Assembly (NCBI RefSeq): GCF_023516595.1
Contig: NZ_JAMGBG010000089.1
Location: forward strand, 1 to 64,000
Reading direction: 5' to 3'
Length of the DNA stretch: 64,000 bases
Origin: Streptomyces neyagawaensis
GTDB taxonomy: Bacteria; Actinomycetota; Actinomycetes; Streptomycetales; Streptomycetaceae
A program made the position numbers and the translations under genes. Shown here piece after piece: positions 13,959-30,730 of this stretch. Positions within the stretch are counted from its first letter, which is position 1, and each line of letters opens with the position of its first letter. Below the pieces are notes generated by a model that saw nothing but the letters and a program-made list of their open reading frames with translations, had not been told where the DNA came from and did no database searches.

Positions 13959-13963
13959 CTCTC

Positions 13964-14010
13964 CCAGAGCCCCCTGTCGGATTCGAACCGACGACCTACG
14001 CATTACAAGT
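13964..14010. other. att site, left copy (47-bp core)
   Basis: These 47 bases are identical to 30653-30699, where they form the 3' half of tRNA-Thr plus four flanking bases. This copy lacks the 5' half of the tRNA (sequence diverges after ACAAGT) and so is not a gene. The pair marks the ends of the integrated element, with element DNA starting at 14011. Confidence 0.93.
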
Positions 14011-14127: not shown

Positions 14128-14147
14128 TGAGACCGCCGTTGAGACCG
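14128..14147. repeat. Candidate integrase arm sites, left end
   Basis: TGAGACC occurs twice (14128 and 14140). The same doubled TGAGACC with a final G occurs near the right end at 30542 and 30555. Paired short repeats at similar distances from both cores are what arm-binding sites of tyrosine integrases look like. The remaining left flank (14011-14407) holds a short GTCCGGGGGT direct repeat at about 14033 and no gene. Confidence 0.45.
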
Positions 14148-14407
14148 TCCAGTGTCTGCACCGTCACACTGATCACCGACAGTCGTGACCTGCGGCCGCC
14201 CATTCAGGCACCCTCCTGACCCGCTGCTGAATCGTCGGCAGCTGTCCACGTTGGTCAACGTTGTGTGCCCCTACACGTCTAGCTTCTGCAGGAATACCCG
14301 GTAACACCCAGTTTCAGAGGATTTGCGGCGCTGGTTTTTCCAAGCTGGCCACACGGGACAGGCTGCTGCGACACGATAGATCTAGTTGCACGGGAGGAGC
14401 GGACTGC

Positions 14408-17400
14408 ATGGGTGAGACGTACCCGTACGAACAGCTGGACGGCCGGCGCTTCCAACTGCTGGCGCAAGGTCTCATCACGGCGGAACACCCTAATGTGCAA
14501 TGCTTCAACCTCTCTGGCCCAGACGGTGGTCGTGACGCCGTTGGCATGTCGCTTCAGTCGGCAAAAGCTTCCTTTCAAGACACACATGTGTTTCAAGTAA
14601 AGTTTCGGGAGCAGAACCCACACGGCATTCCGACAACTGACGATCTCTTCAAGTGGGTTATAACTAACCTGAAAGCAGAGCTACCTAAGGTAAAAAGGCT
14701 CGCACGGAGGGGTGCCGAACTTTTCACCTTTATCACCAATGTCTCAGCCACAGGACACCCCGACTCGGGGCTGCGGGATCGCGTCCGAGACTGGACGACA
14801 GAAAACCTTCCCTTGCCGACCAGTATTTGGTGGCGTGAGGACATAGACGCCCGACTCAGCCGCCACGCGGACCTGGTCTTCAAATTCTCACTGTTTCGCG
14901 GGATCGATTCAGTTCGGGCTTACTTTCAGTCTCTGACCTCAACAGCATCCACGCCAAGCATTCTCTCCGGCGTTTCGGCACATCCCTCCAACCCAGGGAT
15001 GTCAACGATGCTTTTGTACCTGAGTAAGCAGTACGAGGAAGAAGAATCCTTCAGATTCAAGCAAGTAGAGCCCGACCCCATTTCAGTCCTGGATCACTTT
15101 GTAGACACTCCCGTCATCGTGACGCAGCGCAATTTTGAGTTCGGGTATCTCCACTCACTATTGACTTCCGTGGATCCGGAGATCGAGATATTTGACGAAG
15201 ATCATGATGACGCAGGCTATTCAGTAAAAGCGGCCCGACTTGTCATGAACGAGAAGTTCGTTGAAGGCTTCAGGAGGGTAGTCCTCGAGGGGGCGCCGGG
15301 GCAGGGTAAAACGACCCTGGTTCAATACATCGGACAGGTTCACCGAGCCCGGATTCTTAATCGAAACAACGACCTGCAAAGAGTGCCAACAGAACTGACG
15401 TCAGCACCTCTCCGCTTGCCCATCAGAATTGAGCTTCGTCATCTTGGGGTATGGCTTCAAGGCGAGTCTCCTTGGCCTAGCCCATCTGGGGTACCGACAA
15501 CCCAGCCACTACATCCGTCAATCCCATCATTCCTATCGGCGCATGCGGCCTACGCAACTGCTGGCCTGGAACTCACAGCAAACGATGTGATTGCCATCAT
15601 GACGAAGACACCTTCGTTGTTGATGCTGGACGGCCTAGATGAAGTTCCGGATGCTGAGGTTCGGTCACAGGTGGTTGAAGTAGCAGAAAACTTCATCAAG
15701 GACCTCCGTGCTTTCGGCGCAGATATCCAGGTAATCGTTACAAGCAGGCCGTCGTCGAGCACGAAGTCCGCTGTTTTTTCGCGCCAGGGGTTCAAATATC
15801 TGAAGCTTGCCAACCTCGCCGAAGAAGAAATCTGGGAGTATGCAGAAGACTGGATCAAACGAAAGAAGATCTCAGCCATAGAGGCGGTAACGTTTAGAAA
15901 GGTGCTATCTGGGTCTCTACAAAAGAGTCACGTAGCGGCCCTCGCTCGTAATCCCATGCAGTTAGCAATCCTTCTATGGCTTGTACATGTCAAAGATTGG
16001 TCGCTGCCTGACAAGAGAACCGCCCTCTACGACCAGTACATGTCCACCTTCCTCGACCGCGAAGCTACCAAGGATCCCGTTGTCCGGGAAAATCGCCCCA
16101 TCCTATTGGAGCTACACGGGTACATCGCCTGGGAACTCCACGCTCGTAGCGAAGACGCAAAGGCGGCAGGCTCTGGAGCCATCAGTAAGAGCGATTTGAA
16201 AGAACTCATGCGCAGTTACTTGGAAAGTCAAGAAGAGGAGGATCCGGATGCACTAATCGACGTTCTGTTCAGGGGGGTGCAGCGCGTTTTCGCCTTGACA
16301 GAGCGGATCCAGGGAAGTTTTGAGTTTGATATCCAGTCGATGCGTGAGTACTTCGCGGGCACGTACCTCTATAAGACCGCTCCGCATTACAGCAATGCCT
16401 TCGACGTCGCTGGATCCCGCCCGGACAGACTGGAAGCCCTGATTCGCAACCCCTACTGGTTGAATGTAGTCAGATTCTTTTGTGGTTGGTACGACAAGGG
16501 GGAGCTTGCCGACCTCTCCAGACGCCTAATTGACCTCTGCGAGTCCGCTTCCTATCGACTATTGCCTCATCCCAGAGAGCTGGTTTCTTCTCTCCTCGGC
16601 GACCACGTTACACACGTGTCTAAAAGAGACACACGGTTGCTGGCTGAGCAGCTCACGGATCCGTTGAGTTTGCGTTCCGTCGGAAAAGTCTTGAGCGGCG
16701 AAACGGTCTCCACACCAATTCCGCCTAACGAGTTCATCATGCCAGCCATGGCCGCGGAAGCCATGCGGATCTTCCCCCACGTGCAGACTGATGAAGTTTC
16801 TTACGAACTTGCGGCAATTTTGCGATCCCAGATTTCTCCGTCCGATCGCTACTTGTGGTGGAGGGAGCACAGGCCTGATCCAGGGAGTGAACGATTCTCG
16901 GCATGGCTTCGCTCAGGCTCTATTGCACAGGCATATTGTGCAGCCCCAATCGAGGCTGTACCGGAGCTACTTGACCTAGCCTCGGAATCCGTAGAGTCCT
17001 GGATTCGGTGTTGCGAGGCTGGTCGCCTCGACGTGGCCCTTACGAATCCCGCCTGGTTTGAGATGTTTTGGCAACGGTTGTCCGCAGGCAATACCGTCCT
17101 TTCTTACCCGGACAGCATTGAAGGGAAGTACATACACGAGGTCTGGCAGTTTCTTGCTTCCGATATTCCCTTCTTGCATGCTCGCCGACCGAGCGAAGCG
17201 ACATTGCGAGTCCCAGATCGGCATCCGGGAATGCGTGATGAACTTTCTAGACTTCTCGGCCTTTTCAAGTACTTCCCAGAGCAGAGCCTGGCCGACTTCT
17301 CCTCCGTTGTGACGTTCACACAAGAGTCTCGCGCCATCCTGGGTCCTGATTGCTGGACTTCTTGGAAAACTTTGTTGCTCGTGGCGCCAATCTTGACTGA

Positions 17401-18145
17401 CCCAACAGGCAAGAGCCCAGCACCAGGAACCTCTAAGGTTATTTTTCGGTGTTGGAGAAAGCAGGCCGACATCGGATTCTGGAGGGACTTCCTTAACGAC
17501 GAGACGGTCGCGCTTATGCCGAGAGCTGCAGCGTTCGTTTCATGGGCTCCCGCGAACGCCTTCCACATGCTACACGCAGAGATCACCCGAATCTGGGAAG
17601 GCCTGGATCTCTGGCAGATGCCCCTAATTCAGAAGAATATTTCGATTCAGCATACGGTATACAGAGAAATCTTTGAGCCCTGCCGTTTCACAAACAGTGA
17701 ATTCCAAGATCTCCCTGACGTTCTCCCTGGGTGTATGTTTCCCGCCCTGGAGGAGCGGTTCAGGCGCGCTTACGCAACCCCCCTGAAAGTCAATGCATGC
17801 AGGCCCTGCGACACACACGAAAGTGTGGATCTAGCTTATCGGGTTAGCCAACTGATCAATGTGCTTGGCCGAGGAAAAGCCAACCAACTCGACGCGGATT
17901 TGGCTCGCATCAGGGGATTATTTCCCAAATCGCGATCAGGTGTATCTGATCCTTTGCCAAGGGCGGTCAGGTCCTTGTCCGGGCCTAAGAAGCTTCCGAA
18001 GCGGGTCATCTGGGAAATCTTGGAGAACCCCTTCGAGTTTCCGTTTGTACTCGTGGATGTTGCGCAAACAGCGGCCACTGCAGCGATGGTTGAGAAGATG
18101 CCCTCGCTGGCAGCGGTCTCAAGCCGCGACAAGTGGTGCCTTTAA
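14408..18145 (+). CDS. PD-(D/E)XK nuclease-NACHT NTPase, probable antiphage STAND protein
   Basis: The 1,245-residue protein starts at ATG 14408 behind GGGAGGAGC. Residues 1-110 look like an Mrr/restriction-type nuclease: GPDGGRD (37-43) then VFQVKFRE (Q63-x-K65), a D...QxK catalytic pattern. A NACHT domain follows, with Walker A GAPGQGKTT (295-303), Walker B LLMLDGLDE (404-412), VIVTSRP, and ARNPMQLAILLWLV with LPDKRTALYDQY. About 600 C-terminal residues without known motifs would be the sensor. This layout is that of bacterial NACHT/Avs-like defence proteins, in which target binding triggers oligomerisation and nuclease activity. GC is far below the neighbours, and TTA codons at 15962 and 17918 make translation dependent on the bldA tRNA. 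It is element cargo next to the left att site. Confidence 0.88.
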   Translation: MGETYPYEQLDGRRFQLLAQGLITAEHPNVQCFNLSGPDGGRDAVGMSLQSAKASFQDTHVFQVKFREQNPHGIPTTDDLFKWVITNLKAELPKVKRLARRGAELFTFITNVSATGHPDSGLRDRVRDWTTENLPLPTSIWWREDIDARLSRHADLVFKFSLFRGIDSVRAYFQSLTSTASTPSILSGVSAHPSNPGMSTMLLYLSKQYEEEESFRFKQVEPDPISVLDHFVDTPVIVTQRNFEFGYLHSLLTSVDPEIEIFDEDHDDAGYSVKAARLVMNEKFVEGFRRVVLEGAPGQGKTTLVQYIGQVHRARILNRNNDLQRVPTELTSAPLRLPIRIELRHLGVWLQGESPWPSPSGVPTTQPLHPSIPSFLSAHAAYATAGLELTANDVIAIMTKTPSLLMLDGLDEVPDAEVRSQVVEVAENFIKDLRAFGADIQVIVTSRPSSSTKSAVFSRQGFKYLKLANLAEEEIWEYAEDWIKRKKISAIEAVTFRKVLSGSLQKSHVAALARNPMQLAILLWLVHVKDWSLPDKRTALYDQYMSTFLDREATKDPVVRENRPILLELHGYIAWELHARSEDAKAAGSGAISKSDLKELMRSYLESQEEEDPDALIDVLFRGVQRVFALTERIQGSFEFDIQSMREYFAGTYLYKTAPHYSNAFDVAGSRPDRLEALIRNPYWLNVVRFFCGWYDKGELADLSRRLIDLCESASYRLLPHPRELVSSLLGDHVTHVSKRDTRLLAEQLTDPLSLRSVGKVLSGETVSTPIPPNEFIMPAMAAEAMRIFPHVQTDEVSYELAAILRSQISPSDRYLWWREHRPDPGSERFSAWLRSGSIAQAYCAAPIEAVPELLDLASESVESWIRCCEAGRLDVALTNPAWFEMFWQRLSAGNTVLSYPDSIEGKYIHEVWQFLASDIPFLHARRPSEATLRVPDRHPGMRDELSRLLGLFKYFPEQSLADFSSVVTFTQESRAILGPDCWTSWKTLLLVAPILTDPTGKSPAPGTSKVIFRCWRKQADIGFWRDFLNDETVALMPRAAAFVSWAPANAFHMLHAEITRIWEGLDLWQMPLIQKNISIQHTVYREIFEPCRFTNSEFQDLPDVLPGCMFPALEERFRRAYATPLKVNACRPCDTHESVDLAYRVSQLINVLGRGKANQLDADLARIRGLFPKSRSGVSDPLPRAVRSLSGPKKLPKRVIWEILENPFEFPFVLVDVAQTAATAAMVEKMPSLAAVSSRDKWCL

Positions 18146-18502
18146 CCGCCTTGCCCGTTCGGCTCTGAGTCGGCACCCGGTCTCGGCAGCTTTACGTGCT
18201 GCTTGGCTAGGGCCCCCGAGGCCGAACGACCACCCGTCACCTGTGCCTCCAGCAACCCCGACCGGCATCAGCCGCGTTCCCACCTGCGAAATGGCTGTCA
18301 TCTGGACGGAGCAGTCGTGCTTGCTCAAGTTCGGGCTCCGCCTGGTCGCGGCCTTAGATCCTTGAGTTGGAGCAGTTGCTTTGCCTCCTCCTGGCTGTCT
18401 GCCCTGGCTGTGCTGCACGCTGAGCGGCCGGCCTGGTCAGTCGGCGTAGCGGTGGCTGGTACAGAGAGCGACGCGGGAATCTCCGCGCTTTCACGCCTAG
18501 CA
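18146..18502. other. Gene-free stretch
   Basis: The 357 bases between the NACHT stop and the YdcF stop contain no frame with a plausible start, SD and codon bias. No tandem repeat or strong hairpin was seen. Composition shifts here from the lower-GC NACHT gene to the high-GC transfer region, so it may contain the junction of the cargo insertion. Confidence 0.5.
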
Positions 18503-19177
18503 TCACGCGCCAGGAGGGGCGGCAACGTCAGCGGGCAGAAGTCGGCTGGTGAAGCCATCAGCGCACAACCGCTCATAGGCGACCACGACAGGGGCCGGGA
18601 CATCCTGGTCGATGGCCAGTCCCCAACCGGGGAACACAAGCACTCGCTGTAGGGCGCCCACGATCATGTCGATCACCATGCGGGCGTCCCCGATGAAGTC
18701 GGCGTACTCCTTCAACGCCATGGGCGTAGACGCGCTCACGACGTCCACGCCTGGCCAGAGCTTCCGCATCATGGCGTACGACCGCCGCTCTTCGTACGGC
18801 TTGCTGACGAGAAGCACCGATGAGACCTCGATGTCGGCCTCCGCGAGTACGGCCCTGGTGAACTCGATATTCTCCCCCGTGTTGGTCGCGTGAGGCTCCA
18901 ACAGGATGGCCGAGTCGGGCACCCCCAGTTCAAGCGCACGCTCGCGATAATGAACGGCCTCTCCACGCGGCATGCGCTCTCGGGTCGTAGGACTCGTGGC
19001 CCCGGTGAACACGATGACCGGCGCCATGCCCTGGTGGTACAGCTCGGTTGTCACGTCGGCCACACCGAGGTCGTGACTGCCCAGGCCCACGGCCACCGAG
19101 CAGGGCCGTGGCTCGTGGTGCATGCGGTGGTAGTCCCAGAGAAGTTGGGCGTCCGCCCACGCCTGTGCCGAGATCAT
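18503..19177 (-). CDS. YdcF/SanA/ElyC-family (DUF218) protein
   Basis: The 224-residue protein has the DUF218 pattern: a glycine-rich first strand (VAVGLGSHDL), GMAPVIVFTGATSPTT, EPHATNTGENIEFTRAVL, and VSKPYEERRSYAMM, where the basic residue pair is typical. E. coli members act in envelope or peptidoglycan maintenance, but this one has no membrane anchor. It overlaps the GntR gene by 4 bp (ATGA), so the two are co-translated. GntR-YdcF pairs recur in streptomycete integrative elements, but the function there is not known to me. Confidence 0.8.
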   Translation of the reverse strand: MISAQAWADAQLLWDYHRMHHEPRPCSVAVGLGSHDLGVADVTTELYHQGMAPVIVFTGATSPTTRERMPRGEAVHYRERALELGVPDSAILLEPHATNTGENIEFTRAVLAEADIEVSSVLLVSKPYEERRSYAMMRKLWPGVDVVSASTPMALKEYADFIGDARMVIDMIVGALQRVLVFPGWGLAIDQDVPAPVVVAYERLCADGFTSRLLPADVAAPPGA

Positions 19178-19968
19178 TCCTGCACCTTCGCGTCCTGTGC
19201 CGAGTCAGGAACCCTGAAGTCGTACTCCCACGCGAAGCGCGATGCCGCATGGATGCCGACGGCGAACTCTACGACGGTGCCGTCAGCGGTGTAGGTCGTG
19301 CGGTGCAACTCCACGACGGGCTCTCCCGGCGGCAGTTGCAGGAGCTTCACCTCATCCGCCGTGGGGACCCGGGCGAACAAAGCCTCTTTCATGTGGTCGA
19401 TCTCGTACCCCGCGTCATAGAGCACCCTGTACCCGCCACCACGGCCGGCGGGGCCCGGCGTGGGGTCGACGATGCGCGTCCCCTCAACGTGTTCGGGTCG
19501 GTAGTAGCTGGTCAAGGTGTGGGTGGGCTGGCTGCCCTCCTTCACCAAACGGGCCCGCGCGTACACGTCGGAGCCGACCGGGATGCCAAGCCCTCCAGCA
19601 ACGAGGTCGCTCGCCTCAACTCGGCTCACGGTCTGCGTCTGTTCGTTGCGCTTGTACTGGCGCCCCGACGCCACGCGGTCCGCGATGAACGCGACCTCAT
19701 CCCCGTCACGCCACTTCACCTTGTCGTACCGGGCGATACCGAGCCGCTTGAGCGGGGTCCGCGGACGCACGACCGTGCCGTGCCCGCGCGACGACGTCAC
19801 CAGCCCCTCAGCCTCAAGCGCCTTGTACGCCTGATGGACCGTGGACTTGGAGCCCTCCCCGGCCTCGACCAGCTCTCTGATCTGGGGCAACTGGGACCCC
19901 GGCGCGTACTCGCCGTTCCGGATCTGTTCCGCGAGCCGATCCGCCAGCTCCCGCCACTTCGGTGCCAC
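19174..19968 (-). CDS. GntR/HutC-family regulator, KorSA-like
   Basis: The 264-residue regulator has an N-terminal winged helix (WRELADRLAEQIRNGEYAPGSQLPQIRELVEAGEGSKSTVHQAYKALEAEGLV) within residues 5-65. A UTRA effector domain at about 105-250 ends in VVELHRTTYTADGTVVEFAVGIHAASRF. In AICEs of the pSAM2 type this gene is the repressor (KorSA) that keeps excision, replication and transfer genes silent. The multiple GTCCYRGGAC palindromes just upstream (20003-20073) are its likely operators, controlling both its own promoter and the divergent transfer operon. Confidence 0.88.
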   Translation of the reverse strand: MAPKWRELADRLAEQIRNGEYAPGSQLPQIRELVEAGEGSKSTVHQAYKALEAEGLVTSSRGHGTVVRPRTPLKRLGIARYDKVKWRDGDEVAFIADRVASGRQYKRNEQTQTVSRVEASDLVAGGLGIPVGSDVYARARLVKEGSQPTHTLTSYYRPEHVEGTRIVDPTPGPAGRGGGYRVLYDAGYEIDHMKEALFARVPTADEVKLLQLPPGEPVVELHRTTYTADGTVVEFAVGIHAASRFAWEYDFRVPDSAQDAKVQE

Positions 19969-20435: not shown

Positions 20436-20705
20436 ATGAACCCCATCGTCACTGTTCAGGACGCTGTTACCGCGTTCGCCGACTGGATCGAGCCGACGAC
20501 TGCTGAGCTGGACGCGATCGAGCAGGAGATGCCCGCGATCCTCGCGGAGGTCGACCTGCTCGATGCGCAGATCATCACCCTTGACCGCACCCCGACCGAG
20601 GTGGACGCCCGCCGTGTCCGCCGGGCGCGTAACCGGGTGCTGGCCGCGCGGCGTGACGTGGCCAACCGCACCGTCGGCGCGATGCTGCCGGGGGGTGCCG
20701 CGTGA
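20436..20705 (+). CDS. DUF6284-type small AICE protein
   Basis: The 89-residue protein begins MNPIVTVQDAVTAFADWIEPTTAELDAI in outline and is predicted to be two long helices. Residues 25-50 are acidic, and the C-terminal half is rich in Arg (ARRVRRARNRVLAARRDVANR). Similar proteins, which I recall as DUF6284, sit at the head of transfer operons in streptomycete elements. GGGAGAAC before ATG 20436 is a usable SD. The stop overlaps the GTG of the next gene by 4 bp. Function is unknown. Confidence 0.75.
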   Translation: MNPIVTVQDAVTAFADWIEPTTAELDAIEQEMPAILAEVDLLDAQIITLDRTPTEVDARRVRRARNRVLAARRDVANRTVGAMLPGGAA

Positions 20706-21151
20706 GCGCCCCGAACACGAAGCTGACCGCCGCGCACGCCGAGGTGAAGGCGGAGATCACGCGCACGGACACCAAGACCGGGCTGTTGCTCGCGTTCGTC
20801 GGCGCGGTGCTCGCCGGCACGTGGACCGTGGCCCGTGACCTGCCCCTGAACCTCCCCGCCTACGTCGCGGGCGGGTTGGGGGTGGCGCTGCTGGTCGCGG
20901 CGGCCGGTCTGCTGCTGCGCTCGACCCGCCCGAACCTGCGCGGCCGGCACGGGTTCCCGCTGTGGGCGACCCTGACCGCCGAGGAGATCGCCGCCGCCGT
21001 CAGCAGCGGGGATCTCGCGGCGGACGTCGCCGGGCTGTCCCGGCTCGCGGTGGTGAAGTTCACCGCCCTGCGCCGCGCGGTCGACCTCACCATGACCGGC
21101 GGCGCGCTGCTCATCCTCGCGGCCCTGCTCGCGGCGGGGGGTGCGCTGTGA
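20702..21151 (+). CDS. Pycsar-effector-like (DUF5706) membrane protein
   Basis: The 149-residue protein has ITRTDTKTGLLLAFVGAVLAG (about residues 18-40), the hallmark N-terminus of the Pycsar TM effector/DUF5706 family, then a second hydrophobic segment (PAYVAGGLGVALLVAAAGLLL) and a third near the C-terminus (GGALLILAALLAAGGAL). In Pycsar defence such proteins are membrane-disrupting effectors triggered by cCMP or cUMP. No uridylate or cytidylate cyclase gene is nearby, and the position inside the coupled transfer operon suggests a spread (Spd) role instead. Overlaps on both sides are 4 bp (GTGA). Confidence 0.75.
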   Translation: MSAPNTKLTAAHAEVKAEITRTDTKTGLLLAFVGAVLAGTWTVARDLPLNLPAYVAGGLGVALLVAAAGLLLRSTRPNLRGRHGFPLWATLTAEEIAAAVSSGDLAADVAGLSRLAVVKFTALRRAVDLTMTGGALLILAALLAAGGAL

Positions 21152-22371: not shown

Positions 22372-22682
22372 ACACGCGTCCCCAGGGCGGCCGTTGCCCG
22401 GCCGCGCACCTCGAAGACCCCACCCCGTGCGGCGGTGAGGTCGCGGTGACCGTCCTCGACCGCTCCAGTGCGGGCGTGGACGGTTGCGAGCACCACGGCG
22501 CCCGCCTGCTCGCCTCCCTCGACGGCGGACGCGTCTACGCCCTGCCCGTCGCCCCGCCCGGTGCGGCCATCCGCGTGTTCCAGGCCGCCGACGGCATCCG
22601 CCCGTTCTGCTGGCTCGACGGGCCGCGCACGAGGCCGTCCCAGCTCAGCCACGCGGAGAACCGCGCCCGCAACGGCCGCTAA
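22368..22682 (+). CDS. Small AICE protein with spaced Cys/His, unknown function
   Basis: From GTG 22368 the frame encodes 104 residues with CPAAHLEDPTPCGG near the N-terminus and DGCEHHGARLLASL about 30 residues later. Spaced Cys and His residues could bind a metal. The family is not recognised. It ends the coupled gene group; a hairpin follows immediately. Confidence 0.6.
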   Translation: MNTRPQGGRCPAAHLEDPTPCGGEVAVTVLDRSSAGVDGCEHHGARLLASLDGGRVYALPVAPPGAAIRVFQAADGIRPFCWLDGPRTRPSQLSHAENRARNGR

Positions 22683-22689
22683 CGCCACG

Positions 22690-22721
22690 GCCCCCGCCCG
22701 CCCTGCTCGCCGGGCGGGGGC
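22690..22721 (+). terminator. Hairpin before the TraB-type gene
   Basis: GCCCCCGCCCG and CGGGCGGGGGC pair perfectly over an 11-bp stem with a 10-base loop. It lies between two same-strand genes of the transfer region, so it may attenuate rather than end transcription. Confidence 0.6.
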
Positions 22722-22779
22722 TGGCCTCTTCAACTTCCCGCCCCGTGGTGCCCCCGGGGCAGTCAGGAGATACCTCGCC

Positions 22780-24906
22780 ATGGGCGACAACGTCGTTCAC
22801 CTGCACAAGAACCCCGAAACGTCGACCGAACCTGCCCCCGTGACCACGCTGACCGTGGTCCCCGACCCCGCACCGCCCGCTCCCATTCCGCTGTGGGTGC
22901 GTTCCGGCCGCGCGGTGAAGACCGCCGTCACCCACGAGAGCACCCGCACCGCCGCCCGCGCGGTGGTCCGGCACGGCCTCTACACGTTCAACGGCGGGCG
23001 GATCGTGGCCCGCCGCACCTGGGACGGCCGCACCGGTTCCCGCTACGAGCGGATGATCCGCGCCGCCGAAGCCGCGGGGAACCTCGAAGCGGCCGAGGAG
23101 TGGGAGGAGCGCCTCCAGCGCTTCCGCGACGCCCGCCACCGCCGCCGCATGGATCTGCTGCACTCGCCCGTGGACGCGGCCAAGGGTGCGCTGGTCGGCA
23201 CCGGCATGGGCATCGGCGGTCTGGTCGCGCTCGGGGTCGTCCTTGCCATCGCCAACAAGGACGTCACCGAAGTCGTCACGCCGCTGATGGCGGTCATCGA
23301 GTTCATCGGCCTGCTCATCACCATCGTCCAGGTGGTGTGGGGCCCGCTCATCTCGATCGGCCCGTTCCTCGCCCTGCTCGCCCTGTGGGCGGTCGGCAGC
23401 AAGCAGCAAGCCGCACCCCAGTGGGCTCTCCCCGCTCACGTCCGCAACGGTGAGGGCGAGCCGATCACCCCGTCCATCGTCGTCAAGGCACTGCGCGACC
23501 TGGGCATCCCCGCCCTGCGCAACGCCATCAAGGACATGGGTGACGCCGGCGCCTCGATGCTCTCCCCGATCGTGATCGCCGGTTGCGGGGTCGAGGTCGA
23601 CGTCACGCTTCCGTCCGGGGTGTCCACCATCGAGGTACAGCAGCGCCGCCGCAAGCTCGCCGAGAACCTCTCCCGGCACGAGCACGAAGTGTTCATCACC
23701 ATCCCCGAAGCGGCCCGCACCGTCCGGCTGTGGGTCGCCGACTCCGGGGCCCTGGACGAGCCGATCGGCCCGTCCCCGCTGGTCACCGACGAGACGATGA
23801 CCGCCGACTACACCAAGGGCCGCGCCCCCTGGGGACAGGACCTGCGCGGCGACGCCGCTTCCCTGAGCCTGTATCAGCGGCATCTGCTCATCACGGGTCT
23901 GTCGAACCAGGGCAAGACCGCCTCCCTTCGGGCGCTCGCGTTGTGGGCGGCGCTGGACAAGCGGGTTGAGTTCCGGATCGCCGACCTCAAGGGCGTGGGC
24001 GACTGGGCCATGTTCGACGGCCTTGCCACGGTCCTCATCCAGGGGCCGACTGACGAGCACGTGATCGAGGCGACCGAGATGGTGGAGGACGTCCTGGAGG
24101 AGATGAACCGCCGGATTGAGGCGCGGCGGCTCGACCCCGGCGCGGTGTTCGATCCGCTGATCTGTGTCGTGGACGAAGCGCAGGTGGCGTTCATGTGCCC
24201 GGCCGTCGACGACGACAAGCGCCCCTACGGCGGCTCCAAGGCAACATCCCGGTACTTCATGGGCGTCCGCAAGATCCACAACCAGGGGCGTGCGGTGGAC
24301 GTGCTGATGTGGCAGGGCACCCAGGACCCCACCGACCAGAACCTCCCCAAGCTCGTCCGCGAGGGCGCCCACACCCGCGCCTCCCTCGCCCTGGGCACCG
24401 AATCGCAGGCCGTCATGGCGCTCGGCGAGAAGGCCGTCAACGGCGGCGCCGCACCCCACCTGCTCCGCCAGGGGCTGGACAAGGGAACCCTGGTCGTTGC
24501 CTCCGACGGCATCGCCATCCCCAAGGGCCAGTCCGCCCTCACGGTGCGGACGCACTACATCGACGACGACGAGGCCAAGGCCATCACCGACCGCGCCAAG
24601 GCCATCCGCGACGGCGTCACCACCCTCCACAGCATCGACCGGACCGAGGAGCGGGACCCGCTCGCGGACATCGCCGGCGTCATGGGCGACGCCGAACGCG
24701 CCTACACCCAGGACATCCTCAAGCGGCTCGCGGTCCTCAGCGAGGACGCCTACGGCGGGTGGACCTTCGGCGACCTCAAGCGCGTCCTGGAGGCCGCCGG
24801 AGTGGAGGCGTACAAGTCGCACGGCCGCATGACCGTCCGCCGCGACGACGTCACCCGCGCCCTCACCGACCGCGACACCGACGATTCCGCTTCCGCCGAC
24901 GCGTAA
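22780..24906 (+). CDS. TraB-type FtsK/SpoIIIE DNA translocase, conjugal transfer protein
   Basis: The 708-residue protein has hydrophobic segments at about 140-165 and 170-205. Its FtsK/SpoIIIE motor has Walker A GLSNQGKT (373-380) and Walker B LICVVDEAQ (460-468), followed by a winged-helix-like C-terminus (LKRLAVLSEDAYGGWTFGDLKRVLEAAGVEAYKSHGRMTVRRDDV). This fits the hexameric TraB/TraSA family that moves double-stranded element DNA between hyphae without nicking. The gamma-like C-terminal domain would recognise the clt locus, for which GGGGAGGCGGGGAG repeats directly downstream are candidates. GGAGAT precedes ATG 22780. Confidence 0.92.
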   Translation: MGDNVVHLHKNPETSTEPAPVTTLTVVPDPAPPAPIPLWVRSGRAVKTAVTHESTRTAARAVVRHGLYTFNGGRIVARRTWDGRTGSRYERMIRAAEAAGNLEAAEEWEERLQRFRDARHRRRMDLLHSPVDAAKGALVGTGMGIGGLVALGVVLAIANKDVTEVVTPLMAVIEFIGLLITIVQVVWGPLISIGPFLALLALWAVGSKQQAAPQWALPAHVRNGEGEPITPSIVVKALRDLGIPALRNAIKDMGDAGASMLSPIVIAGCGVEVDVTLPSGVSTIEVQQRRRKLAENLSRHEHEVFITIPEAARTVRLWVADSGALDEPIGPSPLVTDETMTADYTKGRAPWGQDLRGDAASLSLYQRHLLITGLSNQGKTASLRALALWAALDKRVEFRIADLKGVGDWAMFDGLATVLIQGPTDEHVIEATEMVEDVLEEMNRRIEARRLDPGAVFDPLICVVDEAQVAFMCPAVDDDKRPYGGSKATSRYFMGVRKIHNQGRAVDVLMWQGTQDPTDQNLPKLVREGAHTRASLALGTESQAVMALGEKAVNGGAAPHLLRQGLDKGTLVVASDGIAIPKGQSALTVRTHYIDDDEAKAITDRAKAIRDGVTTLHSIDRTEERDPLADIAGVMGDAERAYTQDILKRLAVLSEDAYGGWTFGDLKRVLEAAGVEAYKSHGRMTVRRDDVTRALTDRDTDDSASADA

Positions 24907-26148: not shown

Positions 26149-26994
26149 ATGACGCAACCGACCCACCTTCGGCGAGCGTTCGACCTCGCCGCGCACGGCG
26201 TTCCCGTGCTGCCTCTGCGGGCGGGGAAGGTGCCGTTCGGCAATTGCCCCGACTGTGCGGACAACGCGTGCGGCGGCCGGCCGAACATGAAGACCCCCGG
26301 ACCCTGCGGTTGCCCGCAGCCGTGCCATGGCTGGGCCGCCGCCACCACCGACCCCCACGTCCTCACTTCCCCGCCGTGGGCGTCCGCGTGGCGCAAGGCC
26401 GCCGCCGTTGCTTACCACCCCGGCGGCGCCGGGGTGACCGTGGTCGATCTCGACAATCCGGCCGCCGTCGACTGGGCCCGCGCCACCCTGCCGACTACGC
26501 GCACCGTGGCCACCACGCGCGGAGAGCACTGGATCTACCAGGGCGCCATGCGGTCGGTGAACGGCGTCCGTGACGGGGTCGACATCAAGTCCACGATGTC
26601 CTACGCCCGTTGGCTCGGTTCCGGCATTGGTGCCATGACGGCCCTCCCGGACGCGGTGCGCTCGCTGGCAGCGAAGGGACCATCCACCGCTCACAGGGCG
26701 CCCCAGACGGTCACAGTGGCCGCAAGGGGCGGACAGGGCGAGTGCCCTCACCGCACGCCCGCCTACTTGGACCGTGGCCTCGCCATGGCCGAGCAGTGCA
26801 TCACCGAGGCCCGCAGCGCGGTGCACGCCACCGTCTACCGGACGTTCCTCGCCGTGCTGTCCACGCACGGCCGGTGCGGTTGTCTCACCGACGCTCACGT
26901 CACGCGGTTGTTCACCGCAGCGCAGGCCAAGGGCGAATCGGCGCGGCACTGCACCGACGCGTGGACCAACGCCCTGACCACGTTGGGACTGTGA
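26149..26994 (+). CDS. Bifunctional DNA primase/polymerase (prim-pol) replication protein
   Basis: The 281-residue protein has the prim-pol N-terminus (HLRRAFDLAAHGVPVLPLRAGKVP), a Cys-rich zinc-binding insertion (CPDCADNACGGRPNMKTPGPCGCPQPC), then WRKAAAVAYHPGGAGVTVVDLDN with the catalytic acidic pair, and VATTRGEHWIYQG. Such proteins make primers and extend them and are one of the three replication types found in AICEs. The ATPase encoded 2 bp downstream is its expected partner helicase. Start ATG 26149 follows TGGAGGTC. Confidence 0.88.
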   Translation: MTQPTHLRRAFDLAAHGVPVLPLRAGKVPFGNCPDCADNACGGRPNMKTPGPCGCPQPCHGWAAATTDPHVLTSPPWASAWRKAAAVAYHPGGAGVTVVDLDNPAAVDWARATLPTTRTVATTRGEHWIYQGAMRSVNGVRDGVDIKSTMSYARWLGSGIGAMTALPDAVRSLAAKGPSTAHRAPQTVTVAARGGQGECPHRTPAYLDRGLAMAEQCITEARSAVHATVYRTFLAVLSTHGRCGCLTDAHVTRLFTAAQAKGESARHCTDAWTNALTTLGL

Positions 26995-26996
26995 CC

Positions 26997-28469
26997 ATGT
27001 CCGACGACGAGAAGAACCCCGCCCGCGAGGTCATCACCGACTATGCGCAAGCGCACTTCCGCTACTTCCGCACCGCCGACGGGACCGTATACGCGCAGCG
27101 CAACGGCCACCCCGTGGCCCGTCCGATGCGTTCCCAGGGCACGACCGGCAGCCACCGCCAGGAACTCATCGTGGGCATGTACCGGGACGGGGTCGGCGTG
27201 TTCAACGGGACCGCAATCAAGGAGGCGTTGGACTTGATCGAAGCGCTCGCGCTGACCGAGGACGTGCAGCCCGTGCACATCCGCGTCGCCCCCGGATTCG
27301 ACGGGGCCACGTGGTTGGACCTGGGCCGCGCCGACGGGCAGTCCGTCCGCATCCACCCCACCGGCTGGGACATCCTCACCCCCGACCCGCGTGAGGTCTG
27401 CTGGCGCCGGACCCAGCTCACCGGGGAACTGCCCCTGCCGGCCAAGGACACCGACGGCAAGGGCATCGACCTGCTGATGCGGCTGTGCAACTTCGCCAAC
27501 GCCGAGACCGAATGTCTGGCCATCGCGTGGCTCATCGGCTGTCTCGGTCCGTCCGTGCCCGTCCCCGCCCCGTTCCTCACCGGGCCGCAGGGCGCGGGCA
27601 AGTCCACCGGCGGGCGGATGCTCGTGCGAATCATCGAGGGCATGAGCGGCGACCTGCGCCGGGCCCCGAAGGATGAAGAGAACCTGATCGCCGCCGTGGC
27701 GGCCGGATGGGTCACAGCCCTGGACAACCTCTCCCACATGACCCCGGACCTGTCCGACGCCATGTGCTGCATCGTCACCGGCGCCGAGAACGTCAAGCGC
27801 GCCCTGTTCACCGACGGGGACGTGTTCCGTGTCGGCTACCGCCGGCCCCTGCTCCTGACCGGCATCGACGTGGGTGTCATCCGCCCCGACCTCGCCGAAC
27901 GGCTCCTCCCCCTGCGGCTGGAGCGACCCCGCGTCCGGCGCACTGAGGCGGAGCTGTGGGCGGAGTACGCCGAAGTGCTGCCCGTCATCCTCGGCTCGCT
28001 CCTCGATCTCACGGTCAAGGTCCGTGCAGTGGAGGCGGAGACCCCCACCGATCTGCGGATGGCGGACTTCGCCCACCTGTGCGCGCAGCTCGATGCAGCG
28101 ACCGGTCTCGGGGCGCTTAACGCCTACCGGGCAAGCCTGGACGACCTCAACGACGATGTCATTGAGGGGGACCTGTTGGCGCAGACCGTTCTCCGGCACG
28201 CCGCCGACATCGAACCGGGCGCAGAGCAGCGGATGACCTCCACGGAGTGGCTGCACTGCCTCACCCGCCTCTACACCGGCGAGGACTTCCGTCCCCTGCC
28301 CAAAGGGTGGCCGACCACCGGCAAAGTGCTCTCCGACCGTCTCAAGCGCCTCCAGCCGACCCTGGCCGCCCGTGGCGTACTCATCGACTCGGGACGCACC
28401 AGGGAGGGCCGCTACATCGAGATGACCCGCTCACCCGTACCGCTCCCGCACGAGCAGCAAGCGTTCTGA
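26997..28469 (+). CDS. AICE replication ATPase/helicase
   Basis: The 490-residue protein has Walker A FLTGPQGAGKST (196-204) and a Walker B-like region near VTALDNLSHMTPDLSDAM, with a sensor in RRPLLLTGIDVGVIRPDLAERLLPLRL. This is the arrangement of phage/plasmid DnaB- or SF3-like replication ATPases that accompany prim-pol proteins. A winged-helix-like end (LSDRLKRLQPTLAARGVLIDSGRTREGRYIEM) may contact the origin, and an iteron array follows within 200 bp. Start ATG 26997 is 2 bp after the primase stop, indicating coupling. Confidence 0.82.
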   Translation: MSDDEKNPAREVITDYAQAHFRYFRTADGTVYAQRNGHPVARPMRSQGTTGSHRQELIVGMYRDGVGVFNGTAIKEALDLIEALALTEDVQPVHIRVAPGFDGATWLDLGRADGQSVRIHPTGWDILTPDPREVCWRRTQLTGELPLPAKDTDGKGIDLLMRLCNFANAETECLAIAWLIGCLGPSVPVPAPFLTGPQGAGKSTGGRMLVRIIEGMSGDLRRAPKDEENLIAAVAAGWVTALDNLSHMTPDLSDAMCCIVTGAENVKRALFTDGDVFRVGYRRPLLLTGIDVGVIRPDLAERLLPLRLERPRVRRTEAELWAEYAEVLPVILGSLLDLTVKVRAVEAETPTDLRMADFAHLCAQLDAATGLGALNAYRASLDDLNDDVIEGDLLAQTVLRHAADIEPGAEQRMTSTEWLHCLTRLYTGEDFRPLPKGWPTTGKVLSDRLKRLQPTLAARGVLIDSGRTREGRYIEMTRSPVPLPHEQQAF

Positions 28470-28648: not shown

Positions 28649-28857
28649 TGCGTCACAGCGTCACAAGGCGCCCGGAAACCGGCGGGTGACCTGCACATAC
28701 AGCCCGTGACGCAGACGGCGTCACCTGCGTCACGCCGCGTCACCTGCGTCATCGGGGACGCACGGCCTGCGTCACCGATGACGCACCCCCACCCCTCTGC
28801 GTCACCCAAGAACCACAGGTCAGACGCCCTGCATGACGCACGTGACGCTGTGACGCA
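28649..28857. repeat. GCGTCAC iteron array, probable element replication origin
   Basis: About 13 copies of GCGTCA(C), in both orientations (TGACGC), are packed into 209 bases. Copies begin at 28650, 28658, 28706, 28718, 28727, 28737, 28746, 28769, 28779, 28799, 28834, 28842 and 28850. Several are spaced 10 or 19-21 bp apart, that is on one helix face. No gene overlaps the array. It lies between the replication ATPase and xis, the usual position for an AICE origin. The short A/T-richer stretch before it (28621-28640) could be the melting region. Confidence 0.75.
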
Positions 28858-28930
28858 GAAATCCGCGCCTCGGACACACACGCCCCGAGATTCCGCTACA
28901 CCACCGTCTCCGGCCAGGAAGGCAATCCCG

Positions 28931-29131
28931 ATGAGCACCGCGCTCCCGCCCTCCGACCAGTTGCTCTACACCCCGAAGGAGGCCGCCACGGTCCTCCGCT
29001 TCGGCCGCTCCACTGTCTACGAGCTGATGGCCGAGGGCGTCCTGAGGTACGTCAAGCGAGGCCGCTCCCGCCGCATCCGCCGCAGCGACCTGGAGGCGTA
29101 CGTGAACAACCTCGAACCCGAATCCCCCTAA
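28931..29131 (+). CDS. xis: Excisionase (MerR-like helix-turn-helix)
   Basis: The 66-residue protein contains LLYTPKEAATVLRFGRSTVYELMAEGVLRYVKRGRSRRIRRSDLEAYV, a complete helix-turn-helix/excisionase domain of the BldC/MerR type. Its place directly before the integrase gene is that of the AICE Xis, which bends att DNA to favour excision. ATG 28931 was chosen because the domain begins about ten residues later and longer frames run into the iterons. Confidence 0.9.
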   Translation: MSTALPPSDQLLYTPKEAATVLRFGRSTVYELMAEGVLRYVKRGRSRRIRRSDLEAYVNNLEPESP

Positions 29132-29199
29132 CCCACGCCCCACCCGAGGCGCCCCCGGACAACGCGTCCGGGGGCGCCTTCCGCATGGAGGAACACACG

Positions 29200-30609
29200 T
29201 TGAGCCCCCGCAGACCGAACATGGAATCGTCGATCTACCTGGGCAGTGACGGCTGGTGGCACGGCCGCGTCACCATGGGCGTCAAGGACGACGGAAAGCC
29301 CGACCGGCGCCACCGCCGCGCCAAGACCGAGGCCGAGGTCAAGCGCAAGGTCCGCGAGTTGGAAGACCTCCGCGACAAGGGGCGCGCCCCCAAGGCCGGC
29401 CGCAAGCCGACCGTGGCCGAGTGGATGTCGACGTACCTCACCGACATCGCGAGTCTGAAGCTCAAGCCCCGCTCGCTGGACGACTACTGGTCCAAGACCC
29501 GCAACGACATCATCCCCGGAGTCGGCGGACACCGACTGGACAAGCTCCAGCCTGAACATCTTGAGCGGATGTACCGCCGGATGCTCGACGAGGGGCACGC
29601 AGAGTCCCACGTCCTCAAGGTCCACCGCATCCTGTCCCGCGCTCTGAAAATCGCCCACCGCCGCAGGATCATCGCCGAGAACGTCGCCACCCTCGTCGAC
29701 CCGCCCACCGTCGACGAGACCGAGACGAACCCGTTCACGATCGAAGAGGCGAAAGCCTTCTTGCAGGCCGCCGTCAAGCGGCCCACGTTCATGCGATGGG
29801 TCGTCGGTGTGGGTATGGGATTCCGACAGGGTGAGGCCCTGGGATTCCGGTGGAAGTACGTCGACCTCGACAACGAGCTGTTCCACCCTCAATGGCAGCT
29901 CCAGCGCCTCACCTGGCGCCACGGCTGCAAGGACGCCCACGCCTGCGGCGGGCGCCTGCACCGCTTCGACCCTTGCCCACCCGATTGCAAGACCCACAAG
30001 AGCTACAAGCGCGGCTGCCCCAAGCCATGCCCGAAGGACTGCACAAAGCACGCGAGCACCTGCCCCGACCGCAAGGGCGGCGGACTCGTCTTTACCCGCC
30101 CCAAGACCAAGAAAAGCCGGAATTCAGTCCCCATTCCGCCCCCGTTCGTCCCGTACCTGCTGGAGCACAAAGCCCAGCAGGAGAAAATGCGCGCCGCTGC
30201 GGGCGACGAGTGGCAGGAGCACGACGCGCTTTTCACACGGCCGGACGGTCGGCCGATCGACCCCCGCGACGACTGGGAGGAATTCAAAGAGCTGCTCGAA
30301 GAGGCCGGAATCGAGGACCGCCGCCAGCACGACGGCAGTCGCCACACAGCCGGGACGATCCTCAACGAGCTGGGCGTCGACCTCCCCACGATCATGGAGA
30401 TCCTTCGGCACTCCCAGATCGGCCAGACCCGCCGCTACGTCAAGGGCAGGTCCCACCTCGCCAAGGCCGCCATGGTCCGCATGGGAGACACCTTCATGCC
30501 CAGCCCGACACCTACACCGGAACCCGCCCCGAAACCGGCGTCTGAGACCACAACTGAGACCGCCGACACCCGCTCGGCCCGCGCCCGACGCCGCCGCCGT
30601 ATCCGCTGA
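29200..30609 (+). CDS. int: Tyrosine integrase of the AICE
   Basis: The 469-residue recombinase has an arm-binding N-terminus (SSIYLGSDGWWHGRVTMGVKDDG), a SAM-like core-binding domain (about 75-165) and a catalytic domain. The visible catalytic residues are R209 (GFRQGEALGF), R381/H382 (GSRHTAGTIL), H404 (ILRHSQIG) and Y413 (TRRYVKG). A Cys-rich insertion with eight cysteines (about 241-290) interrupts the catalytic domain, as in several AICE integrases, and may bind zinc. TTG 29200 with GGAGG eight bases upstream is preferred; ATG 29185 would contain that SD. The gene ends 44 bp from the right att core. Confidence 0.93.
   Translation: MSPRRPNMESSIYLGSDGWWHGRVTMGVKDDGKPDRRHRRAKTEAEVKRKVRELEDLRDKGRAPKAGRKPTVAEWMSTYLTDIASLKLKPRSLDDYWSKTRNDIIPGVGGHRLDKLQPEHLERMYRRMLDEGHAESHVLKVHRILSRALKIAHRRRIIAENVATLVDPPTVDETETNPFTIEEAKAFLQAAVKRPTFMRWVVGVGMGFRQGEALGFRWKYVDLDNELFHPQWQLQRLTWRHGCKDAHACGGRLHRFDPCPPDCKTHKSYKRGCPKPCPKDCTKHASTCPDRKGGGLVFTRPKTKKSRNSVPIPPPFVPYLLEHKAQQEKMRAAAGDEWQEHDALFTRPDGRPIDPRDDWEEFKELLEEAGIEDRRQHDGSRHTAGTILNELGVDLPTIMEILRHSQIGQTRRYVKGRSHLAKAAMVRMGDTFMPSPTPTPEPAPKPASETTTETADTRSARARRRRRIR
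30542..30562. repeat. Candidate integrase arm sites, right end
   Basis: TGAGACC occurs at 30542 and 30555, inside the last codons of the integrase gene and about 90 bp from the att core. It matches the doubled TGAGACC at the left end. Conserved function is inferred from the symmetry only. Confidence 0.45.
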
Positions 30610-30652: not shown

Positions 30653-30699
30653 CCAGAGCCCCCTGTCGGATTCGAACCGACGACCTACGCATTACAAGT
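30653..30699. other. att site, right copy (47-bp core)
   Basis: This copy is identical to 13964-14010. It covers the anticodon-loop-to-3' end of tRNA-Thr plus four bases beyond, so integration leaves the tRNA intact. Confidence 0.93.
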
Positions 30700-30730
30700 G
30701 CGTTGCTCTGGCCAGCTGAGCTAAGGAGGC
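30657..30730 (-). tRNA. tRNA-Thr (anticodon TGT)
   Basis: The 74-base gene folds with acceptor stem GCCTCCT/AGGGGGC (one T-G pair), D arm AGCTCAGCTGGCCAGAGC, anticodon arm ACGCACTTGTAATGCGT with anticodon TGT reading ACA, and T arm GTCGGTTCGAATCCGAC. The discriminator is T and CCA is not encoded. It is the integration target of the AICE. The 5' half and promoter are chromosomal, and the 3' half was reconstituted by the element. Confidence 0.95.

What the first reader, a model, noticed from the sequence alone, without database searches (positions are those of the whole stretch)
14408..18145. Element-borne nuclease-NACHT defence protein under bldA control
A 1,245-residue protein combines a restriction-type nuclease signature (GPDGGRD...QVK), a complete NACHT NTPase and about 600 residues of unassigned sensor. 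It sits at the cargo end of an AICE. The gene has much lower GC than everything around it and uses at least two TTA leucine codons, so it should only be translated when the bldA tRNA is made. That would restrict antiphage activity to late growth, which would be unusual for a defence system. The C-terminal sensor matches nothing I can name.
Basis: partly seen in the sequence, partly recalled or inferred. Interest (0 to 1): 0.85.

Follow-up and report, generated by a model that had tools for sequence, protein, structure and literature searches.

The report
Mobile-element NLR-like nuclease, probably antiphage
A mobile element in a Streptomyces chromosome carries a large protein built like an animal immune receptor with a DNA-cutting domain at one end, most likely an antiphage alarm; the idea that it is switched on only late in growth by a rare tRNA is not supported by its relatives, which hardly use the codon in question.

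Summary
The physical observations hold. ORF 14408-18145 (+) encodes 1,245 aa: residues 1-165 a Mrr-like PD-(D/E)xK domain, 193-757 folding like the NACHT module of NOD2, NLRC4 and NLRP3, 742-1245 a predicted helical solenoid. It is the first gene inside attL of a 16.7-kb AICE in tRNA-Thr. It belongs to a rare family of near-constant length found in many bacterial phyla. Nuclease and NTPase residues are near-invariant; the C-terminus diverges fast but is homologous. Two plasmid relatives have an HNH domain in place of the nuclease. Seventeen tRNA-Thr elements have a GC-poor slot beside attL; four others hold ThsA+TIR, a retron-type RT, a TIR-like protein or an OLD/Gaj-type ATPase, most others nothing recognisable. 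Best reading: a bNACHT-type abortive-infection nuclease. The bldA story fails as an evolved control: TTA is scarce (2 against about 17 expected naively, perhaps half that after a baseline seen in all groups), lies at codons 519 and 1171, and is not shared with relatives. Streptomycetaceae homologues of GC3 0.5-0.7 have 0-2 TTA (n=11), other actinomycetes 4-18 (n=14). This allele may still need bldA tRNA. Function is inferred; nothing was tested at the bench.

The parts
14408..18145 (+). nuclease-NACHT-solenoid protein gene, 1,245 aa, ATG start, GGGAGGAG at 14392-14399
   Evidence: RBS seen in sequence printed
14408..14902 (+). aa 1-165: predicted PD-(D/E)xK (Mrr-like) nuclease domain, helix-strand-strand-strand-helix-strand order
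   Evidence: AlphaFold2 model; hhalign to Mrr_cat profile prob 85-88; PADLOC REase-containing profiles hit residues 1-169 of some relatives weakly
14516..14536 (+). GPDGGRD motif (aa 37-43); D39 in 84 and D43 in 83 (E in 2) of 85 ungapped rows
14594..14602 (+). QVK (aa 63-65); Q63 and K65 in 87 of 87 ungapped rows
15272..15859 (+). NACHT NTPase, aa 289-484 (Walker A K301, D411-E412 in 88 of 88 rows)
14984..16678 (+). aa 193-757: NLR-like nucleotide-binding and helical module
   Evidence: VIA-align: NOD2 5irn Z 18.0, rmsd 5.7, 416 aligned; Foldseek NOD2 4e-9, NLRP3, NLRC4
16631..18142 (+). aa 742-1245: all-helical solenoid, presumed sensor
   Evidence: AlphaFold2 pLDDT 83.4, pTM 0.85; homologous across the family
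15962..15964 (+). TTA codon 519 (a Leu conserved in most of the family)
17918..17920 (+). TTA codon 1171 (a variable position)
13964..14010 (.). attL, 47-bp exact direct repeat
30653..30699 (.). attR, overlaps the 3' part of tRNA-Thr
30656..30730 (-). tRNA-Thr (TGT), integration target
29185..30609 (+). tyrosine integrase
   Evidence: PF00589 7e-17
28706..29131 (+). excisionase (TIGR01764)
26610..28469 (+). possible replication protein (by position only; conserved in some sibling elements)
   Evidence: no Pfam or NCBIfam match; 80-92% identity in 6 of 21 sibling stretches
22468..24906 (+). FtsK/SpoIIIE-like transfer protein
   Evidence: PF01580 3.1e-6
20702..21151 (+). PycTM-domain protein, shared with some sibling elements
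   Evidence: PF18967 1.8e-15; PADLOC PycTM 1.2e-10
19174..19968 (-). GntR/UTRA regulator, shared with sibling elements
18503..19177 (-). DUF218 protein, shared with 4 sibling elements

Best explanation
It is a bacterial NLR-related (bNACHT-type) antiphage protein carried as cargo by an AICE. SHOWN by computation: a Mrr-like domain with an intact motif, an NLR-type NACHT and helical module, and a rapidly diverging helical C-terminus, on one polypeptide whose length hardly varies across phyla; insertion of the element in tRNA-Thr. INFERRED: at rest the protein is a nucleotide-bound, auto-inhibited monomer; the solenoid detects a phage product or an infection-perturbed host protein; the NACHT module exchanges nucleotide and oligomerises; the N-terminal domains are brought together and cut DNA without much discrimination, stopping the infection at the cost of the cell. 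The element gains by protecting its host lineage. Expression is probably not meant to depend on bldA: the Streptomycetaceae members sampled here keep few or no TTA codons (0-2 per gene), and the two left in this gene look like residue.
For: NACHT over its cut-off, and found in 30 of 30 members at E<=0.1. NLR fold, with NOD2, NLRC4 and NLRP3 at Z 16-18; Avs4 (1.6e-6) and Avs3 (5.7e-6) among the Foldseek hits. Nuclease: element order, Mrr_cat profile match at prob 85-88 against <=0.7 for the other five segments of this protein tested, near-invariant D39/D43/Q63/K65. Conserved front and divergent C-terminus: median identity over every seventh pair 45% for aa 1-160 and 40-52% for aa 281-760, but 14-19% for aa 761-1180. 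Effector exchange: a Mycobacterium and an Arthrobacter plasmid protein keep NACHT and C-terminus but start with an HNH_2-like domain. Patchy: at least 7 of 394 family genomes, own included, at E<=1e-80 (two candidates scored per genome), yet 160 relatives in genome contigs, the 80 kept spanning many phyla. The slot beside attL in some sibling elements holds known defence types. Precedent in PMC12169576 (passages): bNACHT25/32 have an N-terminal PD-(D/E)XK DNase, and D48A abolishes defence and DNA degradation.
Against: No antiphage activity is known to me for any member found here. PADLOC has no matching model for the window protein, Pfam sees no nuclease in it, and the Mrr relation rests on a moderate profile match. 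NCBIfam's antiphage EruA hit is weak (20.6 bits against a cut-off of 1000). Of 12 slots with cargo looked up, 7 held no recognised defence type, apart from one HNH-like protein. No solved structure convincingly matches the solenoid, so the trigger is unknown. The window protein is a long lone branch (1.95; best identity 40%) and could have drifted in function.
Confidence: 0.72

Rival explanations
1. One reading: a defence protein whose translation is deliberately confined to late growth by two TTA codons and bldA tRNA.
For: Two TTA codons; tRNA-Leu(TAA) gene in the same genome; [quoted passage not shown] Two other GC-poor Streptomycetaceae members also have two TTA codons (L050, L073). Mature Streptomyces mycelium is reported less phage-sensitive (PMC10117723, abstract and passages).
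Against: TTA is depleted in this gene (2 of 30 TTR codons against 18 CTA of 47 CTR codons, Fisher p 0.0015). All 16 Streptomycetaceae rows compared have 0-2 TTA, none of the 15 others at these two sites. GC3-matched Streptomycetaceae members have 0-2 (n=11), other actinomycetes 4-18 (n=14). Both codons lie far from the start, whereas PMC4255298 (passages) implies a bias towards gene starts in Streptomycineae and reports that TTA codons were often not kept where genes were conserved.
Confidence: 0.1
2. Element-against-element weapon: the protein acts mainly on incoming plasmids or rival AICEs that use the same tRNA-Thr site, not on phages.
For: The site is crowded: three att copies, hence two tandem elements, in G139; at least 31 of 199 genus genomes, own included, carry a related integrase at E<=1e-100.
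Against: Tandem occupation shows that such elements can coexist; the other identified slot cargoes (Thoeris-like pair, retron-type RT, OLD/Gaj-type ATPase) belong to classes known mainly as antiphage (recalled).
Confidence: 0.15
3. A type IV-like, modification-dependent restriction enzyme: the Mrr-like domain cuts modified DNA, the NTPase is a motor, and the solenoid is the DNA reader.
For: The N-terminus matches Mrr_cat, the only restriction family profile that I compared by hhalign.
Against: The central module is of NLR type with its helical domains, not a translocase; the C-terminus diverges very fast, which suits sensing of changing proteins better than reading DNA; HNH occurs in place of the nuclease on the same chassis.
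Confidence: 0.08
4. A STAND-type regulator with a dead nuclease domain, not a defence effector.
For: Inactivated restriction folds beside NACHT domains exist (recalled, no call).
Against: D39, D43, Q63 and K65 are near-invariant over 88 rows from many phyla.
Confidence: 0.05

Closest known systems
bNACHT25 / bNACHT32 (bacterial NLR-related, clade 6; PMC12169576, passages seen)
   Same: N-terminal PD-(D/E)XK DNase effector, central NACHT, C-terminal sensing part
   Different: Clade 6 has the NCH1 helical domain; no NCH1 match reached E<=0.1 in 30 of our members. The sequences could not be compared, as bNACHT25 was not at hand.
Avs4 / Avs3 (AVAST STAND NTPases)
   Same: N-terminal nuclease, STAND NTPase and large helical sensor (recalled); among the Foldseek hits
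   Different: No Avs model was listed for 30 members in PADLOC at E<=0.1; our C-terminus is about 490 aa and no TPR model matched in Pfam
Animal NLRs (NOD2, NLRC4, NLRP3)
   Same: Fold of the NACHT and helical module, Z 16-18
   Different: A nuclease-type domain instead of CARD/PYD, a helical solenoid instead of LRR; about 15% identity
Mrr_cat restriction nucleases
   Same: Motif spacing and order, hhalign prob 85-88
   Different: Below Pfam recognition; joined to an NLR module
pSE211-type tRNA-Thr AICEs (PMC3218068, passages seen)
   Same: Integrase group that targets tRNA-Thr, Xis, Tra; a figure legend on Frankia AICEs in that paper lists a NACHT NTPase
   Different: Of the words searched there, 'defense', 'restriction' and 'phage resistance' do not occur; that our integrase is of pSE211 type was not tested

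Membership tests
bacterial NLR-related (bNACHT) | NACHT domain | tested here: met
   PF05729 30.8 bits, cut-off 26.7; 30 of 30 relatives at E<=0.1
bacterial NLR-related (bNACHT) | N-terminal effector, central NACHT, C-terminal sensor-like part | tested here: met
   (that the C-terminus senses is inferred)
bacterial NLR-related (bNACHT) | NLR-type fold of the nucleotide-binding and helical module | tested here: met
   NOD2 Z 18.0, rmsd 5.7, 416 aligned
bacterial NLR-related (bNACHT) | protects against phage | not testable with these tools
   -
bNACHT clade 6 (bNACHT25-like) | NCH1 C-terminal helical domain | tested here: inconclusive
   no NCH1 match at E<=0.1 in 30 members; the published clade alignment was not available
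AVAST/Avs | match to Avs profiles | tested here: inconclusive
   PADLOC: none for the window protein at E<=1, none listed for 30 members at E<=0.1; fold similarity to Avs3 and Avs4
PD-(D/E)xK / Mrr-like nuclease | catalytic motif D...QxK kept | tested here: met
   D39 84 of 85, D43 83 of 85 (E in 2), Q63 and K65 87 of 87
PD-(D/E)xK / Mrr-like nuclease | core secondary-structure order | tested here: met
   H12-26 E30-32 E44-47 E59-65 H77-100 E103-110
PD-(D/E)xK / Mrr-like nuclease | Pfam Mrr_cat or other REase model over cut-off | tested here: not met
   no REase model in Pfam for 30 members at E<=0.1; only a profile-profile match
PD-(D/E)xK / Mrr-like nuclease | fold match of the domain to solved enzymes | not tested
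   the domain was not folded and searched alone; in the 757-aa model the NACHT part filled the hit list
AICE | tRNA-site integrase, flanking repeats, excisionase | tested here: met
   three genomes with the left-flank gene within about 50 bp of tRNA-Thr
AICE | FtsK/SpoIIIE-type Tra | tested here: met
   PF01580 27.2 bits, cut-off 24
AICE | recognised replication initiator | tested here: inconclusive
   26610-28469 has no Pfam or NCBIfam match
bldA-controlled gene | TTA codon and a bldA gene present | tested here: met
bldA-controlled gene | TTA kept in Streptomycetaceae relatives | tested here: not met
   0-2 TTA per gene; at the columns of codons 519 and 1171 only the window has TTA among 16 Streptomycetaceae rows
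bldA-controlled gene | TTA near the gene start | tested here: not met
   codons 519 and 1171 of 1245

The most novel reading that the evidence does not exclude
Defence genes that move into Streptomyces are selected to ESCAPE the bldA gate: they stay AT-rich in other respects but lose TTA, because an immune receptor must be ready in young mycelium when phages strike. The tRNA-Thr AICEs, with their GC-poor slot beside attL, would be shuttles for such purged immune genes, and TTA purging would be a readable mark of how long a defence gene has lived in Streptomycetaceae.
Probability: 0.35. Interest if true: 0.68.

Novelty: new member of a known kind. Interest (0 to 1): 0.5.

Why it matters
It describes a phylum-crossing family of NLR-like nucleases of near-constant length whose effector can be exchanged, and for whose window member PADLOC 2023 has no model. 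It shows a GC-poor cargo slot, at times filled by known defence types, in a common Streptomyces AICE family. It also turns a loose idea (defence timed by a rare tRNA) into a sharp, testable opposite: immune genes shed the codons that would delay them. The comparison at similar GC3 makes that testable genus-wide.

Tried and rejected
bldA control: rejected as an evolved property, though not excluded for this allele. 'Low GC = recent arrival from a low-GC donor': doubtful, because 80 of 84 family ORFs are GC-poorer than the stretch they lie in and 4 are equal, and TTA scarcity suggests long residence. Phage origin: no match in 50,697 phage records; viral contigs gave none with the single protein and 3 with the alignment. 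PDB by sequence: nothing for the single protein and nothing convincing for the profiles. Fold of the solenoid: generic HEAT-like rows, best Z 7.6 over 123 residues, which may mean only a common arrangement. Cap4 nuclease (PF14130): searched in 61 genomes, 2 with matches, not pursued. Promoter scan: no sigma-70-like site in 13950-18700, uninformative. Element slots: seven further cargo proteins were looked up against plasmids. One resembles HNH endonucleases (L221), one is a pentapeptide-repeat protein (L218), three match mostly unnamed proteins (L217, L220, L224), two match nothing (L222, L223); L224 and L218 also gave nothing in the PDB. Five slots (L226, L227, L228, L231, L232) were not looked up. 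One search is void: I read some Mrr loci on the wrong strand; one search repeats it, choosing strands by recalled Mrr motifs checked against the strands.

Limits of the TTA comparison: the naive expectation TTG x CTA / CTG is too high everywhere; even the groups without a bldA story fall short of it (odds ratios 0.48 other actinomycetes, 0.65 Proteobacteria, 0.53 other phyla), so about half of the naive 17 is a fairer expectation for this gene. Group lists were made by hand from record titles. L119 is a viral contig that I put with Proteobacteria, whereas the tree puts it beside Pseudonocardiaceae; it is outside the GC3-matched test. L062, L066, L111 and L117 (copies of L029, L030, L031 and L033) and the split gene L036 were left out; L040, L071 and L095 (Proteobacteria), L114 and most low-GC phyla were not listed. 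L123, L125, L126, L128, L129 and L163 were looked at later (0, 2, 0, 0, 0 and 0 TTA; L125 is identical to L073 in the tree). Rows are related, so the Mann-Whitney p-values (2e-5, 3e-4) overstate independence. Non-defence AT-rich Streptomyces genes were not tested as a control, so the shortfall may be general rather than special to defence. The 18 cargo ORFs came from a simple ORF rule (GC up to 0.60, 220 codons or more) and may include false ones.
Full report
OBSERVATION. The ORF 14408-18145 is real: 1,245 aa, ATG start with GGGAGGAG 8 nt upstream, alignable from residue 4-5 with relatives. GC is 54%; the ten other element genes I listed are 66-75%. Exactly two TTA codons exist. The host genus is Streptomyces: contigs of three 'same genus' genomes (G084, G191, G181) have the lengths of the contigs of S. 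humi, S. albospinus and S. eurythermus that hold the same genes.

ELEMENT. A 47-bp exact repeat at 13964-14010 and 30653-30699 marks both ends; the right copy lies across the 3' part of tRNA-Thr. Inside are integrase, excisionase, an FtsK-like Tra, a GntR regulator, DUF6284, a PycTM protein and a DUF218 protein. Three genus genomes (G108, G102, G016) have the window's left-flank DNA, ending at 12593-12604, within about 50 bp of tRNA-Thr, so the site occurs unoccupied; these lack the stretch with the cellulase gene 12824-13885 too. That gene lies outside attL, as it lies outside the last att copy in G139. The NACHT gene is the first inside attL.

FAMILY. With a profile of 11 members, 292 stretches of genome contigs matched a pattern, 160 encode relatives and 80 were kept; these 80 include Actinomycetota, Pseudomonadota, Cyanobacteriota, Bacteroidota, Chloroflexota, Bacillota, Acidobacteriota, Spirochaetota and others. 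Of 84 family ORFs in the 83 loci are 1,200-1,300 aa long; the rest include split, cut or short ones. It is rare: at least 7 of 394 family genomes, own included, at E<=1e-80 and 9 of 392 genus genomes at E<=1.2e-50; both searches scored only two candidates per genome, so these are lower bounds. Over 88 aligned rows, D39, D43, Q63, K65, K301, D411 and E412 are invariant or nearly so. Median identity (every seventh pair of rows) is 45% for aa 1-160, 30% for aa 161-280, 40% for aa 281-480, 52% for aa 481-560, 48% for aa 561-760, 14-19% for aa 761-1180 and 23% for the last 65 residues.

DOMAINS. The model of aa 1-757 (pLDDT 88.2, pTM 0.80) has the helix-strand-strand-strand-helix-strand order of PD-(D/E)xK enzymes, with D43 just before one strand and Q63-K65 in the next. 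hhalign of aa 1-165 and 1-110 with a Streptomyces-order Mrr_cat alignment gives probability 85 and 88 (P 6e-6 and 3e-6), aligning DGGRD with DGGVD and QVK with QAK; five other segments of the same protein give 0.1-0.7 (28 of 30 Mrr loci could be used). PADLOC profiles of a REase-TIR protein and of PDC-S73 hit residues 1-169 of some relatives weakly. Residues 193-756 superpose on NOD2 with Z 18.0, rmsd 5.7, 416 aligned. The model of aa 742-1245 (pLDDT 83.4, pTM 0.85) is nearly all helical and has no convincing solved match. It is not an orphan: a profile of the other members' C-termini, built without the window, finds it at E 6.2e-23, while the reversed sequence and the only two of 20 shuffles that were listed score E 34 and above. 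The distant relatives L037 and L038 are not found by it (E 26 and 6.8).

EFFECTOR EXCHANGE. Two plasmid proteins, from Mycobacterium lentiflavum (L028) and Arthrobacter (L027), match the window from residue 198-199 on and the C-terminal profile at 3e-38 and 6e-42, but begin with an HNH_2-like domain (PF13391: L028 at 21.9 bits against a cut-off of 21; L027 at 16.5, below it). A chassis with exchangeable nucleases is what an effector-receptor would show.

CARGO SLOT. A related integrase (E<=1e-100) occurs in at least 31 of 199 genus genomes, own included. I read 22 of these 31 elements: the window, G084 and 20 more; of G139 I read the whole site; eight were not read. tRNA-Thr lies beside the integrase in 20 of 22; repeats of 18 bp or more were found in 18 of 22 (L229's is short and does not overlap its tRNA; three of the four without one are short stretches). 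In 17 with a definable slot next to attL (limits set by hand), slot GC is 0.55-0.68 and below the rest of the stretch in 17 of 17. Cargo was looked up in 12 of 17, as a rule one protein each: window NACHT; G084 ThsA-Macro (PF20016 1.5e-57) with TIR-TM (PADLOC 2.9e-57); L229 retron-type reverse transcriptase (Ec86 RT 6.5e-19); L234 an ATPase with AriA, PtuA, OLD and GajA as PDB hits at 2e-6 to 5e-4 and FtsE and UvrA at 0.003; L230 a TIR-like protein (weak: PDB E 0.087; a plasmid TIR protein E 4e-16). I picked L229, L230 and L234 because I recognised motifs. The other seven gave one HNH-like, one pentapeptide-repeat, three without a useful name and two without a match. So 5 of 12, window included, are of recognised defence type; five slots were not looked at.

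bldA. The genome has tRNA-Leu(TAA). In this gene TTA:TTG is 2:28 while CTA:CTG is 18:29 (about 17 TTA expected from these ratios; Fisher p 0.0015). For genes with GC3 0.5-0.7, TTA counts are 0-2 in 11 Streptomycetaceae, 4-18 in 14 other actinomycetes and 3-20 in 8 Proteobacteria; the first range overlaps neither of the others. Mantel-Haenszel odds ratios for the whole groups are 0.06 (16 rows), 0.48 (19), 0.65 (18) and, for other phyla, 0.53 (7): some shortfall is general, and the Streptomycetaceae one is about eight times deeper. At alignment columns where both groups have leucine, 6 of 1,154 leucine codons are TTA in nine GC-poor Streptomycetaceae rows and 83 of 1,592 in 14 other actinomycetes. 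On a 93-row quick tree the Streptomycetaceae label needs at least four changes (gains or losses). The GC-poor ones fall in three or four places (window, which stands next to L037/L038; L050/L053/L075/L024; L068/L029/L030/L073), each with 0-2 TTA, while the row beside the last group, L087, has 9. The tree warns that the window and L037/L038 are long branches whose joining may be false. GC-poor cargo of the sibling elements is also short of TTA: 11 seen, 83 expected by the same naive rule over 18 ORFs. Neither TTA site is shared with any of 15 other Streptomycetaceae rows; at codon 519 none of 20 other actinomycetes but 15 of 52 remaining rows have TTA. A review (PMC4255298, passages) notes that TTA is rare in S. 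coelicolor (147 chromosomal genes), that TTA codons were often not kept where the genes were conserved, and implies a bias to gene starts in Streptomycineae; it also lists 29 genes or clusters in which TTA is widely kept. So the sequence argues for avoidance of bldA dependence, with two residual codons; whether these limit translation is open.

MECHANISM AND PLACE. The closest characterised relatives in design are bNACHT25/32 (PD-(D/E)XK, NACHT, sensing part), in which nuclease activity is needed for defence and DNA is degraded on infection (PMC12169576, passages). I infer the same logic here. Membership in clade 6 could not be decided. Literature searches on these themes (open-licence papers only; 25 of 65, 20 of 21, 15 of 114 and 10 of 50 papers listed, titles and abstract starts seen) showed no bldA-dependent defence protein and no description of this family in what was listed; the nearest was a 2026 phage paper that counts TTA-bearing phage genes (PMC13350457, passages). 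The founding bNACHT and Avs papers are not held, so the family may be described there.

ODDS. On re-checking I lowered the novel case from 0.40 to 0.35: the tree's four changes may include losses, the GC-poor Streptomycetaceae rows may fall in only three places, and a milder TTA shortfall is seen in all groups.

Noticed in passing
window 20702-21151: PycTM (Pycsar effector-like membrane) protein in the element; no cyclase was named among the neighbours scanned. Also present in the G084, G140 and G165 elements, so it may serve the element (exclusion?) rather than a Pycsar system.
   Followed up: partly
L184 (G139), att copies at 924-970, 9982-10028, 15743-15789: Two tandem elements at the same tRNA-Thr; one carries a 1,942-aa RHS-repeat protein.
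   Followed up: partly
L185 2008-3879 (G084): ThsA-Macro plus TIR-TM pair in the same slot of a sibling AICE, GC 0.54-0.55.
   Followed up: yes
L229 locus 14018-14989 and neighbour at 13136-13891: Retron-type reverse transcriptase next to a 251-aa protein whose start resembles DUF3800 (by eye, no call) in a sibling AICE.
   Followed up: partly
L036 7609-11321 (G011); L108: Family genes split into two overlapping frames, possibly decayed copies or sequencing errors.
   Followed up: no
L130 4001-7963: A Klebsiella variicola conjugative plasmid encodes a 1,320-aa distant relative (20.6% over aa 1-690), with a Lit-family exclusion protein gene in the same stretch.
   Followed up: partly
L037/L038 (G104, G252): Distant Streptomyces relatives share nuclease and NACHT but have a C-terminus that the family profile does not match.
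   Followed up: partly
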